The translations under genes were made by a program, and so were the position numbers. A DNA stretch of 46,126 bases from Paludibacter sp. (GTDB taxonomy: Bacteria; Bacteroidota; Bacteroidia; Bacteroidales; Paludibacteraceae), in NCBI GenBank assembly GCA_030653695.1, contig JAURYY010000279.1, positions 1 through 46,126 of the forward strand, written 5' to 3'. This document shows, one piece after another, positions 24,168-44,595 of this stretch. The notes under the pieces are model-generated. The model was not told the origin of the DNA. It saw only the letters and a list, made by a program, of their open reading frames with translations, and made no database searches. How positions within the stretch are numbered: position 1 is the first letter of the stretch; each line of letters starts with the position of its first letter.

Positions 24168-25481
24168 TTAATTCTCCTGTGGGAAATTTTGGGGGCTACC
24201 TTTCCAGATTTTTTCAGGTTTCAATTGTCCTTGTCTGTATAAAATTTCACGATAATCATTGGTTTTGAAAATAATAAAATCGGCTTTCATTCCTGCTTTC
24301 AGAATTCCCCTGTCATTTTTGTTTAACGCAGTGGCAGCTCTACAAGTCAATGCAGCCCATACTTCTACCATACTGAGTTTTTCTGCCGCTCCCAGAATTG
24401 CGGCTGAAGCAAGCAAATCGCCCATGGGAGCAGATCCCGGATTCCAGTCGGAGGCAATAACAAGCGAAGTTCCGACATCCAACAATTTTCGGGCTGGAGC
24501 AAAAGGTTCGCCTAATCCCAGCGAAGCTGCCGGAAGTACAACAGGAATCACATTTCCTTTTGCTAACAAAGCGATTTCTTCATCATTCGCCGCTTCGAGA
24601 TGATCAATGCTCAACGCCTGTACTTCGTTTGCCAAAGTAACACCACCTGTACTGAATTGATCGCCATGAATTACAATTTCAAAACCCATTTCGCGGGCTT
24701 TCAGTAAATAACTTCTGGCTGCCGAAACAGAAAATGCACTTTTTTCTACAAAAATATCCACCCGGTTGGCAAGACTTTTTTCTTTTATTATTGGTAATAA
24801 TTCTTCGATAATCAATTGAAGATATTCCTTTTCACCTCCTTCAAAATCTTTTGGTAAAATATGTGCAGCCAGACAAGTGGGAATAAGTTCAGCTTTGGTT
24901 TGTTCGTTTGCTAATCGTATGGCTTCCAGCATTTTCAATTCCTGTTCGACCGATAAACCATAGCCGCTTTTCACCTCGATAGTTGTAATGCCTTGTTTGA
25001 ATAATGTGTTGGCTCTTTCTACAGTTAAAGTTACAAGTTCGTTCAAAGTAGCTTCGCGTGTTTTGGTCACGGTGTCCCATATTCCACCTCCGGCAGCAGC
25101 AATTTCAAGATAGCTTTTTCCGGCTAAGCGCATGGCATAATCCTTAAAGCGGGAACCAGCCCAACAAATATGGGTGTGTACATCAATCATTCCGGGCAGG
25201 CAAACATAGTGGTCCGAAAGAAATTCAATTTCTGCTGATGGATAATGTTGCTTCAGTAGTTCAAAATTCCCGACTTCTACTATCTTTCCATTGTGTTGCA
25301 CAATGCCTCCATTCGGAATTATTTCTAATTGTTCGTCGGATAAAGCACCTCTTAAAGGAAGTTTATCCATGGTGAGAAGTTGGGAAAACGGACCAACAAG
25401 AACCCCCAACCCCCTAAAGGGGGGTTTCTCCTCTACAAGTGAGGATTTTTCTTTTTTAAGCAATATTTTTTTTATTAGCAT
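24168..25481 (-). CDS. hutI: Imidazolonepropionase
   Basis: 437 aa: LPGMIDVHTHICWAGSRFKDYAMRLAGKSYLEIAAAGGGIWDTV, VIHGDQFS, ASDWNPGSAPMGDLL. Confidence 0.95.
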   Translation of the reverse strand: MLIKKILLKKEKSSLVEEKPPFRGLGVLVGPFSQLLTMDKLPLRGALSDEQLEIIPNGGIVQHNGKIVEVGNFELLKQHYPSAEIEFLSDHYVCLPGMIDVHTHICWAGSRFKDYAMRLAGKSYLEIAAAGGGIWDTVTKTREATLNELVTLTVERANTLFKQGITTIEVKSGYGLSVEQELKMLEAIRLANEQTKAELIPTCLAAHILPKDFEGGEKEYLQLIIEELLPIIKEKSLANRVDIFVEKSAFSVSAARSYLLKAREMGFEIVIHGDQFSTGGVTLANEVQALSIDHLEAANDEEIALLAKGNVIPVVLPAASLGLGEPFAPARKLLDVGTSLVIASDWNPGSAPMGDLLASAAILGAAEKLSMVEVWAALTCRAATALNKNDRGILKAGMKADFIIFKTNDYREILYRQGQLKPEKIWKGSPQNFPQEN

Positions 25482-25552
25482 TTTTTATTTCTGAATAAAT
25501 CAAAAACACATCGATTTGCAGTATTTAAGCCCCTTTAGGGGGTTTGGGGGTC
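25401..25552. mobile_element. MITE-like bipartite palindromic element spanning the hutU/hutI junction
   Basis: Arm 25401-25427 (AACCCCCAACCCCCTAAAGGGGGGTTT) and inverted arm 25527-25552 (reverse complement GACCCCCAAACCCCCTAAAGGGGCTT). Both arms lie in open reading frame. Confidence 0.65.
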
Positions 25553-37009: not shown

Positions 37010-39457
37010 TCACTCAAACTCTACCACCGTAATTCCGGCTCCGCCAAACTGAACATGTTCGTCTCTGTAAGTTTTCACACCATGTACAGTTCCCAGATAT
37101 TGCCGTATCATTTGCCGCAAAGCACCGGTTCCGGTTCCGTGAAGTATGCGAACGGACGCAATTCCCACCATTACTGCATCGTCGATAAAGTAGGTAACTG
37201 CCTGTAAGGCTTCGTCAACCCGCATACCACGTACATCAATTTCCGATTTGAAAGTCAGTTTCCGCTGACGAACTTCATCGGTGGTAGAATTTCCTATGTT
37301 TTCATATTTGTGTTTTTCTTTTTTTAACTGATTATTACTCACAATTTCCAATTTTGTAAGTTTTACGGTCGATTTCATAAGTCCGAAAGCTACAACGGCA
37401 TTTTTATCCTGAATTTCGATAATGGTTCCGGTAGCGGTTTGTCCTTTCAAGCGAACGTGAGTGCCAGCCAGAAACCCCACCCCGACCCTCCCCAAAAGGG
37501 AGGGAGACTGAGTTTCATTAATGTTTTTGCGTTGAAATACAATGCGTTCTCCCTCTCCTTTGGAGAGGGTTAGGGAGAGGTCTTTCTTAAAATCCTCCAG
37601 CTCCTTCCTTACTTCTTTTGTTTTTTCTTTTTCAGCCTGCGCTTCTTTTATTTGGCGAATGGTGTTCTCAATCTTTGCGTTACTGTCGCTTAAAAGTTGT
37701 TGAGCTTCAGCCTTTGCCTTTTGAGTAATCTCCTTGCGCTGACGTTCAGTATTAGCCATTTCGGTTTCGTATTTTGCAAGCGTATCCTCTAACTTCTTTT
37801 CTTTCAGGCGAATTTCCCTGCGCTTGTTTTCCCAGTATCGTTTGTCGCGTACAATGTCCTGCAAATGTTTGTCGTAATCCATGCGGTCCGAACCTGCTTT
37901 TTCGGCTGCATCGGCTATCAAATCTTCGGGTAACCCAATTTTTCGTGCTATTTCCACTGCAAACGAACTGCCCGGGTTGCCGATACTCAGTTGAAAAAGC
38001 GGTTGCAGATGTTGCCGGTCGTAAAGCATGGCGCCATTCACAATGCCTTCGGTAGCATCGGCGTATAGTTTGAGGTTGGTGTAGTGCGTTGTAATTACAC
38101 CAAAAGCCATGTTGCGGTTAAAGCGCTCCAACGTAGCTTCGGCAATAGCACCTCCAATCATGGGTTCGGTTCCGGTTCCGAATTCATCAATCAATAACAA
38201 TGTTTTCGGATTACTGTTTTTAATGAAAAATTTCATGTTCAACAAATGTGAACTGTAAGTTGATAAATCGTTTTCGATAGATTGCTCATCGCCGATGTCG
38301 ATAAACAGTCGTTCAAATATTCCTGCCCGACTACTGTCGTGAACAGGGACTAACAATCCGCACTGCAACATATATTGCAGCAAAGCCACAGTTTTCAGAC
38401 AAACCGATTTTCCGCCTGCATTGGGACCCGAAATCAGTAGAATGCGTTGTTTCTCATTCAAAACAATATCTAATGGCACTACTTCTTTTTTTTGTTTTTT
38501 CAGCGATAAAAACAGAAGTGGATGTACCGCTTTCGTCCATTCTAATTGACAAATATCATCAATACGTGGTTTAATTGCTTTAATTTCAATCGCAAACAGA
38601 GCTTTTGAACGCAGAAAATCTATTGTTCCCAAAAAATGTTGCGAAGCAACAATTTCTTCACTAAAAGGACGAATAAAATTGGTAAATTCAACCAAAATAC
38701 GAATAATTTCGCGTCGCTCTTCGCCTTCCAACTCTCTGATTTGGTTGTTGGCTTCTACTACCTGTTGCGGTTCGATAAAAACGGTTTTCCCGGTCGCCGA
38801 TTCGTCATGTACTATACCGCTTACTTTGCGTTTAAAAGCAGGCGATACTGGAATTACCAATCGTCCATCGCGCATGGTGGGTGCAACATCTTTTTCGACA
38901 TAACCATCCGCTTGTGCCTGACGCAGAATAGCTTGCAGGGTTCGAGAAATTGAACTTTGAACTTGCTGCAGATCTTTGCGGATGCGTGATAATTGGGGCG
39001 AAGCATTGTCTTTTAATTTTCCGAATTTATTTAATAAATTATCAATACGTTTGATTATCAAAGGAAAAATTTCTGTTTCTGGCAATAATTCCGATAAATA
39101 CGGATAGGGAGTATCTTCTTTTTTAGTCAGAAACGATACAAGTTTTCGCACGGCTTCCAATGCCCGCCAAAGCCCGAAAACTTCCAACTCGTCCAAAAAC
39201 AGTCCTTCAACCCGAACTCGTGTCAAAGCCGGACGAACATCGTAAAAATCGCCAATTGGCAGTTCTTCGCCATCGGTAGTTATGATGCGAAGCATTTCAT
39301 CAGTCTGGTTCAAAAATTTAGTAATTTCCCCAAAATCGATCGAAAACGCTATGTTATCGACTTTTTCTTCGCCCAATGTGCTGATACATTTTGTTTTCAG
39401 TAACAGCCGAATAGCGGAGAAATCTGTTTTTTGTTCGAAATGTGAAGGATATAACAT
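37010..39457 (-). CDS. mutS2: Endonuclease MutS2 with an internal repeat-derived segment
   Basis: 815 aa: ISGPNAGGKSVCLKTVALLQYM, LLIDEFGTGTEPMIGGAIAEA, C-terminal Smr domain (EIDVRGMRVDEALQAV...RILHGTGTGALRQMI). Confidence 0.95.
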   Translation of the reverse strand: MLYPSHFEQKTDFSAIRLLLKTKCISTLGEEKVDNIAFSIDFGEITKFLNQTDEMLRIITTDGEELPIGDFYDVRPALTRVRVEGLFLDELEVFGLWRALEAVRKLVSFLTKKEDTPYPYLSELLPETEIFPLIIKRIDNLLNKFGKLKDNASPQLSRIRKDLQQVQSSISRTLQAILRQAQADGYVEKDVAPTMRDGRLVIPVSPAFKRKVSGIVHDESATGKTVFIEPQQVVEANNQIRELEGEERREIIRILVEFTNFIRPFSEEIVASQHFLGTIDFLRSKALFAIEIKAIKPRIDDICQLEWTKAVHPLLFLSLKKQKKEVVPLDIVLNEKQRILLISGPNAGGKSVCLKTVALLQYMLQCGLLVPVHDSSRAGIFERLFIDIGDEQSIENDLSTYSSHLLNMKFFIKNSNPKTLLLIDEFGTGTEPMIGGAIAEATLERFNRNMAFGVITTHYTNLKLYADATEGIVNGAMLYDRQHLQPLFQLSIGNPGSSFAVEIARKIGLPEDLIADAAEKAGSDRMDYDKHLQDIVRDKRYWENKRREIRLKEKKLEDTLAKYETEMANTERQRKEITQKAKAEAQQLLSDSNAKIENTIRQIKEAQAEKEKTKEVRKELEDFKKDLSLTLSKGEGERIVFQRKNINETQSPSLLGRVGVGFLAGTHVRLKGQTATGTIIEIQDKNAVVAFGLMKSTVKLTKLEIVSNNQLKKEKHKYENIGNSTTDEVRQRKLTFKSEIDVRGMRVDEALQAVTYFIDDAVMVGIASVRILHGTGTGALRQMIRQYLGTVHGVKTYRDEHVQFGGAGITVVEFE
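37471..37581. mobile_element. MITE-like palindromic element inserted in frame in mutS2
   Basis: Imperfect inverted arms ACCCCACCCCGACCCTCCCCAAAAGGGAGGGAGAC and TCTCCCTCTCCTTTGGAGAGGGTTAGGGAGAGG flank a short core. Encodes LSLTLSKGEGERIVFQRKNINETQSPSLLGRVGVG. Confidence 0.75.
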
Positions 39458-44457: not shown

Positions 44458-44595
44458 AATGAGTATCGGGTATTGTACCTAAGGAAAAGATAACTATCTA
44501 AAATTCAACAAGATACCAATCAAACGATAGAATTGATTAATTGTTTGATTATCAGCACTTAAGAGTGTTTTTAGGTACAATACCCGATACTCATT
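44458..44595. mobile_element. 138-bp MITE-like element with perfect 25-bp terminal inverted repeats
   Basis: AATGAGTATCGGGTATTGTACCTAA (44458-44482) and its exact reverse complement (44571-44595). Internal nested AATCAAAC/GTTTGATT pair. Possible TAAA target duplication. Confidence 0.75.

What the first reader, a model, noticed from the sequence alone, without database searches (positions are those of the whole stretch)
37471..37581. Palindromic repeat element inserted in frame inside mutS2, adding about 35 codons
MutS2 reads continuously through LSLTLSKGEGERIVFQRKNINETQSPSLLGRVGVG, between the coiled-coil (KEVRKELEDFKKD) and the following domain (LAGTHVRLKGQTATGTIIEI). The DNA is a bipartite element: imperfect inverted arms (ACCCCACCCCGACCCTCCCCAAAAGGGAGGGAGAC / TCTCCCTCTCCTTTGGAGAGGGTTAGGGAGAGG) around an AT-rich core. 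Such arms are normally expected between genes. This looks analogous to Rickettsia palindromic elements that persist inside ORFs. Its position in a linker may explain tolerance.
Basis: partly seen in the sequence, partly recalled or inferred. Interest (0 to 1): 0.78.

Follow-up and report, generated by a model that had tools for sequence, protein, structure and literature searches.

The report
Mobile palindrome translated inside MutS2
The extra stretch in this bacterium's MutS2 protein is a 108-base repeated DNA element read as protein, and it belongs to a family that also carries its own DNA-cutting enzyme and sits, in frame and without any splicing signal, inside essential enzymes across the Bacteroidota.

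Summary
Window 37474-37581 is an exact 108-bp (36-codon) element: two inverted C-rich hairpin arms around an AT-rich core, read in frame in the linker between the coiled coil and the SH3/Smr part of MutS2. The host is a Paludibacter-like MAG. It does not simply add codons: in same-genus orthologs this linker is hypervariable at similar length and was filled repeatedly by at least four unrelated dispersed repeats; no empty site was seen.

Clean empty and filled sites exist elsewhere. The same 108-bp unit, alignable without gaps, sits in frame at four sites of leucyl-tRNA synthetase (LeuRS). At one LeuRS site, and in MetH, PurL, IleRS, HsdM and others, similar arms enclose an in-frame DUF559 nuclease resembling Vsr and I-Bth0305I. 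DUF559 genes have arms on both sides in 25 of 47 loci (random positions at most 0.0005). Embedded nucleases are under purifying selection, and one copy is far less diverged than its host gene, so it moved.

Best reading: the MutS2 insert is a nuclease-less, MITE-like derivative of a DUF559 element. That the nuclease moves it is inferred. In-frame palindromes are known (Rickettsia RPEs, intragenic REPs); the nuclease partner appears new.

The parts
37474..37581 (-). 108-bp (36-codon) arms-only element, in frame in mutS2
   Evidence: gap-free alignment with LeuRS inserts of the same length; dispersed copies
37551..37581 (-). arm that comes first in the coding direction: foot ACCTCTCCCTAA plus hairpin CCCTCTCC-AAA-GGAGAGGG
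   Evidence: copies up to 97% identical in the genome
37505..37550 (-). AT-rich core between the hairpins
   Evidence: core resembles the cores of LeuRS inserts, shuffle P about 0.001
37474..37504 (-). inverted second arm: hairpin CCCTCCC-TTTTG-GGGAGGG plus foot TCGGGGTGGGGT
37010..39457 (-). mutS2, 815 aa, host gene
37349..37465 (-). MSSS (SH3-like) domain, aa 665-703, just after the insert
37016..37240 (-). Smr domain, aa 740-814

Best explanation
The MutS2 insert is a nuclease-less (arms plus core, MITE-like) copy of a mobile element whose full form carries a DUF559 endonuclease between two inverted REP-like arms. The full form integrates at conserved positions of housekeeping and restriction genes, stays in frame, and is translated as part of the host protein with no recognisable intein or intron. 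SHOWN: the MutS2 unit is 108 bp, in frame, repeated, and alignable without gaps with arms-only inserts in LeuRS; arms of the same design flank DUF559 genes far above chance; embedded DUF559 is under purifying selection; at least one DUF559 copy spread between lineages after their host genes diverged. INFERRED: the nuclease cuts or nicks the target or the arm hairpins, repair copies the element in, and arms-only copies are moved in trans. In MutS2 the insert persists because the linker tolerates turnover.
For: Dispersed arms. Same 108-bp unit without gaps in MutS2 (G000, G028) and LeuRS sites 1a, 2, 3, 4, with similar core for G000 MutS2 (P about 0.001). Left arm of the G028 LeuRS DUF559 insert, ACCTCTCCCCAGCCCTCTCCAAAGGAGAGGGAGAAT, nearly equals the MutS2 arm ACCTCTCCCTAACCCTCTCCAAAGGAGAGGGAGAAC. 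Clean empty and filled LeuRS sites. DUF559 in frame between arms in LeuRS, MetH, PurL, IleRS, HsdM, type ISP genes. Arms on both sides of 25/47 and 16/22 DUF559 loci against at most 0.0005 of random positions. dN/dS 0.07-0.19. Insert less diverged than host in G017/G022, P = 2e-8. Fold like NGO0050, I-Bth0305I and Vsr.
Against: No direct evidence that DUF559 moves the arms. No DUF559 was seen in any MutS2. About a fifth of DUF559 loci show no arm by my definition. The G028 MutS2 core does not resemble the LeuRS cores. Arm sequences differ between DUF559 copies, so the cognate nuclease of the MutS2 copy is not identified.
Confidence: 0.68

Rival explanations
1. The arms are ordinary REPs moved by a Y1/HUH transposase (RAYT or IS200-like), and DUF559 genes are merely passengers in repeat-rich places.
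For: REPs elsewhere have RAYT partners, and Bacteroidetes have their own TnpA-REP subclasses (PMC6006769). The genome holds 7 Y1 matches.
Against: None of the 7 Y1 loci in this genome has arms of this family; three have their own CCCCCAGAT..ATCTGGGGG hairpins. DUF559 loci have arms on both sides far above chance.
Confidence: 0.17
2. The MutS2 linker just drifts by recombination with repeats elsewhere in the genome; the insert is not a unit that transposes.
For: The linker is hypervariable and hosts several repeat types, some of them simple tandem repeats.
Against: The unit is exactly 108 bp and alignable without gaps with inserts in LeuRS, where sister genomes have empty sites.
Confidence: 0.1
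3. The inserted RNA or protein is removed or bypassed (intron, intein, ribosome bypassing), so the host protein is normal.
For: The paired arms form a very stable stem in RNA; the inserts sit in essential genes.
Against: No intein domain, no Rfam intron. Inserts keep an open frame, and the embedded DUF559 has low dN/dS, which skipping would not require.
Confidence: 0.04
4. Assembly or binning artefact of metagenome data.
For: The window genome is a 383-contig assembly, and most relatives are MAGs.
Against: In-frame inserts of the same kind occur in single-contig genomes (G288 LeuRS, L260; G421 MetH, L264) and at the same sites in independently assembled genomes.
Confidence: 0.01

Closest known systems
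Rickettsia palindromic elements (RPEs)
   Same: Palindromic repeats of about 100-150 bp that sit in frame inside unrelated protein genes and are translated (PMC10969869).
   Different: Different sequence and phylum; here the arms are also the ends of a nuclease-coding element.
REPs / BIMEs with RAYT transposases
   Same: C/G-rich hairpin with a foot, in inverted pairs, dispersed; intragenic in-frame REPs are already reported, including in tRNA synthetase genes (PMC3733652).
   Different: About half of the best copies inside conserved ORFs; no Y1 transposase with these arms in the genome; DUF559 instead.
Homing endonucleases of the Vsr-like / EDxHD type (I-Bth0305I)
   Same: Fold of the catalytic domain; same conserved gene site filled in distant genomes; empty alleles; horizontal spread.
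   Different: Not inside an intron or intein; translated as a permanent domain of the host; bounded by palindromic arms.
MITEs
   Same: Small non-autonomous inverted-repeat copies alongside a longer coding form with similar ends.
   Different: No target-site duplication seen; the presumed partner is a nuclease, not a DDE transposase.

Membership tests
Rickettsia palindromic element | palindromic repeat translated in frame inside unrelated genes | tested here: met
   MutS2, LeuRS, AlaS, HsdM and others
Rickettsia palindromic element | sequence family of the Rickettsia RPEs | not tested
   No RPE sequence was compared; the phylum is different
REP with RAYT partner | short GC-rich hairpin with foot, dispersed, in inverted pairs | tested here: met
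REP with RAYT partner | same arms flank a Y1 transposase gene | tested here: not met
   7 Y1 matches in this genome, none with these arms; genome 98% complete
MITE | non-autonomous copies share ends with a longer coding element | tested here: met
   arms-only and DUF559 forms in the same LeuRS gene
MITE | target-site duplication at the ends | tested here: inconclusive
   LeuRS sites 2 and 3: about 9 nt of host sequence replaced, no duplication seen; ACC or GGT at the target may be microhomology
Homing endonuclease | nuclease fold of a homing family with conserved active-site residues | tested here: met
   AF2 model matches I-Bth0305I and Vsr; E, D, G, H invariant in 26 copies
Homing endonuclease | cuts the empty allele at its insertion site | not testable with these tools
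   needs purified protein
Intein / intron | self-splicing domain or ribozyme | tested here: not met
   no Hint-type domain, no Rfam intron
DUF559 (PF04480) | nuclease domain above curated cut-off in the LeuRS insert | tested here: met
   E 2.9e-29, 101.6 bits against cut-off 20.6; the MutS2 insert itself holds no such domain

The most novel reading that the evidence does not exclude
A phylum-wide class of mobile elements in Bacteroidota: a Vsr/EDxHD-like nuclease (DUF559) between inverted palindromic ends that homes into conserved sites of essential enzymes (LeuRS, MetH, PurL, IleRS) and is carried as a translated, never-spliced domain, while its 108-bp nuclease-less copies, such as the one in MutS2, are mobilised in trans and remodel protein linkers.
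Probability: 0.55. Interest if true: 0.87.

Novelty: new variant of a known kind. Interest (0 to 1): 0.74.

Why it matters
Translated palindromic inserts have been known in Rickettsia since 2000, with no mobiliser named in the passages read here. This system offers a candidate nuclease, empty and filled sites in related genomes, and complete genomes with the insert, so the question of how such elements move becomes testable. It would also mean that essential enzymes can carry a foreign nuclease domain without splicing, and that mobile DNA keeps rewriting protein linkers such as that of MutS2. It would give DUF559, a common family of unknown function, a role.

Tried and rejected
RAYT/IS200 as source: the 7 Y1 loci lack these arms. 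Clean insertion into MutS2: no empty ortholog found; the linker is hypervariable. Intein or intron: not found. A reading-frame preference of the arms was considered and dropped: two of three forward frames are open and both are used (the MutS2/LeuRS frame, and the other in some MetH copies). AF2 of the whole G000 LeuRS with inserts failed (mean pLDDT 33.8) and is not used. A script for an HMM test of the core failed and was replaced by a position-weight profile with shuffles. Rfam near-hits over the element (MIR6224, whalefall-1) are far below threshold.

Full report
WHAT WAS CLAIMED. A palindromic repeat element lies in frame inside mutS2 at 37471-37581 and adds about 35 codons, analogous to Rickettsia palindromic elements.

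THE OBSERVATION. mutS2 is 37010-39457 on the minus strand, 815 aa, with no stop through the insert. Pfam finds MutS_V, MSSS (aa 665-703) and Smr (aa 740-814); the element ends about three codons before MSSS. The two arms are hairpins with outer feet, inverted to each other; in the window they match only inside this element and are not expected by chance. The linker of the gene folds at -64.6 kcal/mol. Genome-wide there are about 25 arm-length matches at E<0.1, some 97% identical, and one further full-length copy at 74% identity. The exact hairpin pattern occurs 18 times in this genome against 0 for the reversed control, 49 times in relative G028, and once in G016. The host is a Paludibacter-like member of the Bacteroidales, judged by the titles of the nearest named records.

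ORTHOLOGS: NOT A SIMPLE ADDITION. Aligning 30 and then more than 50 MutS2 orthologs shows that this linker is hypervariable in the genus, at roughly constant length. Distant relatives have a lysine/glutamate-rich linker. Within the genus the linker carries at least four unrelated repeat types: (A) the present one, LSLTLSKGEG...; (B) PKSPKGDLKS from CCCCTAAATCCCCTAAAGGGGACTT; (C) GRDRSRPV from GGTAGGGACAGGTCGCGACCTGTCC in inverted pairs; (D) ETRNTEHE from short CGAAACACGAAAC repeats; and further palindromes such as GTAGCGACGTTGCTTGCAACGTCGCTAC. A search of twelve joined linkers against the twelve genomes found dispersed copies of linker pieces in eleven of them. On a MutS2 tree built without the linker, family A needs 4 changes and family C 3; the close sisters L040/L074 carry C and B, and L042/L043 carry B and C. 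MutS2 is therefore a recurrent landing site, and no empty site was seen.

OTHER COPIES ARE OFTEN INSIDE GENES. About half of the best arm matches in the window's genome lie inside conserved ORFs: LeuRS, AlaS, HsdM, two MmeI-type restriction-modification genes and MutS2. AlaS carries one arm in a loop (HLPSIPSKGGD) that twelve relatives lack. PurL carries a second, arms-only insert.

LEURS GIVES CLEAN SITES. LeuRS in same-genus genomes shows four insertion sites. Site 3 is FILE^YICGW: about 9 nt (GATGGTAAA in empty relatives) is replaced by the element in G000, G028 and G011. Site 2 is GRAKNW^YPLEL: filled in five genomes, and empty in G025, the close sister of filled G013. Site 4 is filled in G027. 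Site 1 carries a much longer in-frame insert in five genomes, and single-arm remnants in G025, G013 and G011 (possibly G019). The arms-only inserts, ends taken at ACC...GGT, are exactly 108 bp at sites 1a, 2, 3 and 4 and in MutS2 of G000 and G028 (11 of 13 measured; the others are 109 and 141 bp), and align without gaps. The G000 MutS2 core resembles the LeuRS cores (shuffle P about 0.001); the G028 MutS2 core does not (P = 0.45). In the window the element is thus 37474-37581.

THE FULL FORM CARRIES A NUCLEASE. The long LeuRS insert encodes a DUF559 domain (PF04480). DUF559 is likewise embedded in frame in MetH, IleRS, PurL, HsdM, type ISP and WxcM-like genes, mostly between recognisable arms. 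The window's own genome has it in LeuRS, MetH and PurL; the PurL copy has lost a catalytic Asp (EVYG for EVDG). LeuRS site 1 is filled in several other families of the order and phylum, and MetH has a second site. DUF559 occurs in 57 of 148 genomes of the order and 140 of 249 of the phylum sampled. Free-standing DUF559 genes also have arms: both sides in 25 of 47 loci overall against at most 0.0005 of random positions, and in 16 of 22 additional loci. The embedded nucleases largely form one clade with host switches (LeuRS, MetH, IleRS, HsdM, WxcM). Active-site type residues (E77, D79, G80, H83, D66) are invariant in 26 aligned copies. The AF2 model (pLDDT 87) matches NGO0050, the homing endonuclease I-Bth0305I catalytic domain and Vsr.

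MOBILITY AND TRANSLATION. On the LeuRS tree, occupancy of site 1 needs at least 8 changes. Embedded DUF559 has dN/dS 0.07-0.19 where it could be computed, so it is maintained as protein. Between G017 and G022, 18.7% of amino-acid-conserved codons differ in the insert against 43.5% in the host (Fisher P = 2e-8; one of ten pairs tested): this insert spread after the hosts diverged. No intein domain or intron was found, and LeuRS and MutS2 each gave a single match in G000, so the inserted proteins are presumably functional as they are. Single-contig genomes carry such inserts, which argues against assembly artefacts.

HOW IT MOST LIKELY WORKS. Shown: repeat family, in-frame coding, fixed unit, same arm design as the DUF559 elements, purifying selection on the nuclease, horizontal spread of at least one copy. 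Inferred: the nuclease cuts target or arms, repair copies the element in, and arms-only copies like that in MutS2 are moved in trans. LeuRS targets contain GGT or ACC at the junction, matching the element ends, which may act as microhomology; this is a lead from four sites only. The MutS2 copy is probably a passenger tolerated by a flexible linker; no function is claimed for it.

COMPARISON. It works like Rickettsia palindromic elements (PMC10969869) and intragenic REPs, which are already documented in several bacteria including tRNA synthetase genes (PMC3733652). It is not shown to be a RAYT-type REP: no Y1 transposase in the genome has these arms. It resembles homing endonucleases in fold and site recurrence but lacks splicing. 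Searches of the open paper library for DUF559 with palindromes, REP with endonucleases, and in-frame homing insertions found no report of this association; subscription literature was not searched.

LIMITS. No experiment; relatives are mostly MAGs; flank tests use one hairpin definition; the LeuRS whole-protein model failed; the tree of short DUF559 domains has moderate support at the embedded clade (83/84).

Noticed in passing
window 25400-25552: A second bipartite palindromic element of another family (CCCCCAACCCCCTAAAGGGG / CCCCTTTAGGGGGTTTGGGGG) at the hutU-hutI junction; it supplies the C-terminus of the urocanase-like ORF ([11 protein letters not shown]) and the N-terminal extension of the imidazolonepropionase-like ORF.
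   Followed up: partly
window 4687, 10745, 17083, 18999, 36793: Perfect palindrome TCCCGATAGCTATCGGGA (and a close variant) dispersed in the window. A longer form lies about 1.1 kb from a RAYT-like Y1 gene in L066, which may be its partner.
   Followed up: no
L061 (G000 contig C308): A Y1 (IS200-like) transposase gene sits between a Cas12a-type nuclease gene and cas4-cas1.
   Followed up: partly
L067 (G000 contig C320): Palindrome ACAAGGGGGCATGCCCCCTTGT occurs twice in frame inside a long methylase-like ORF (RGHAPLSAAGRHAPLS): another coding palindrome family.
   Followed up: no
L062, L063, L064 (G000): Three related Y1 transposase genes with CAACCTC-type hairpins; CCCCCAGAT..ATCTGGGGG hairpins lie on both sides in L063 and on one side in the others. 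In L064 one such hairpin is interrupted by TCCCGATTGCTATCGGGA.
   Followed up: no
window 44458-44482 and 44571-44595: A perfect 25-nt inverted repeat with 88 nt between the arms, not examined.
   Followed up: no
LeuRS site 1 in L202, L210 (and L199, L204): Single-arm remnants where relatives carry the DUF559 insert, as if the element was lost and left a scar.
   Followed up: partly
G000 contig C153 (L191): The DUF559 embedded in PurL has EVYG in place of the catalytic EVDG, so a probably dead nuclease is still carried in frame.
   Followed up: partly
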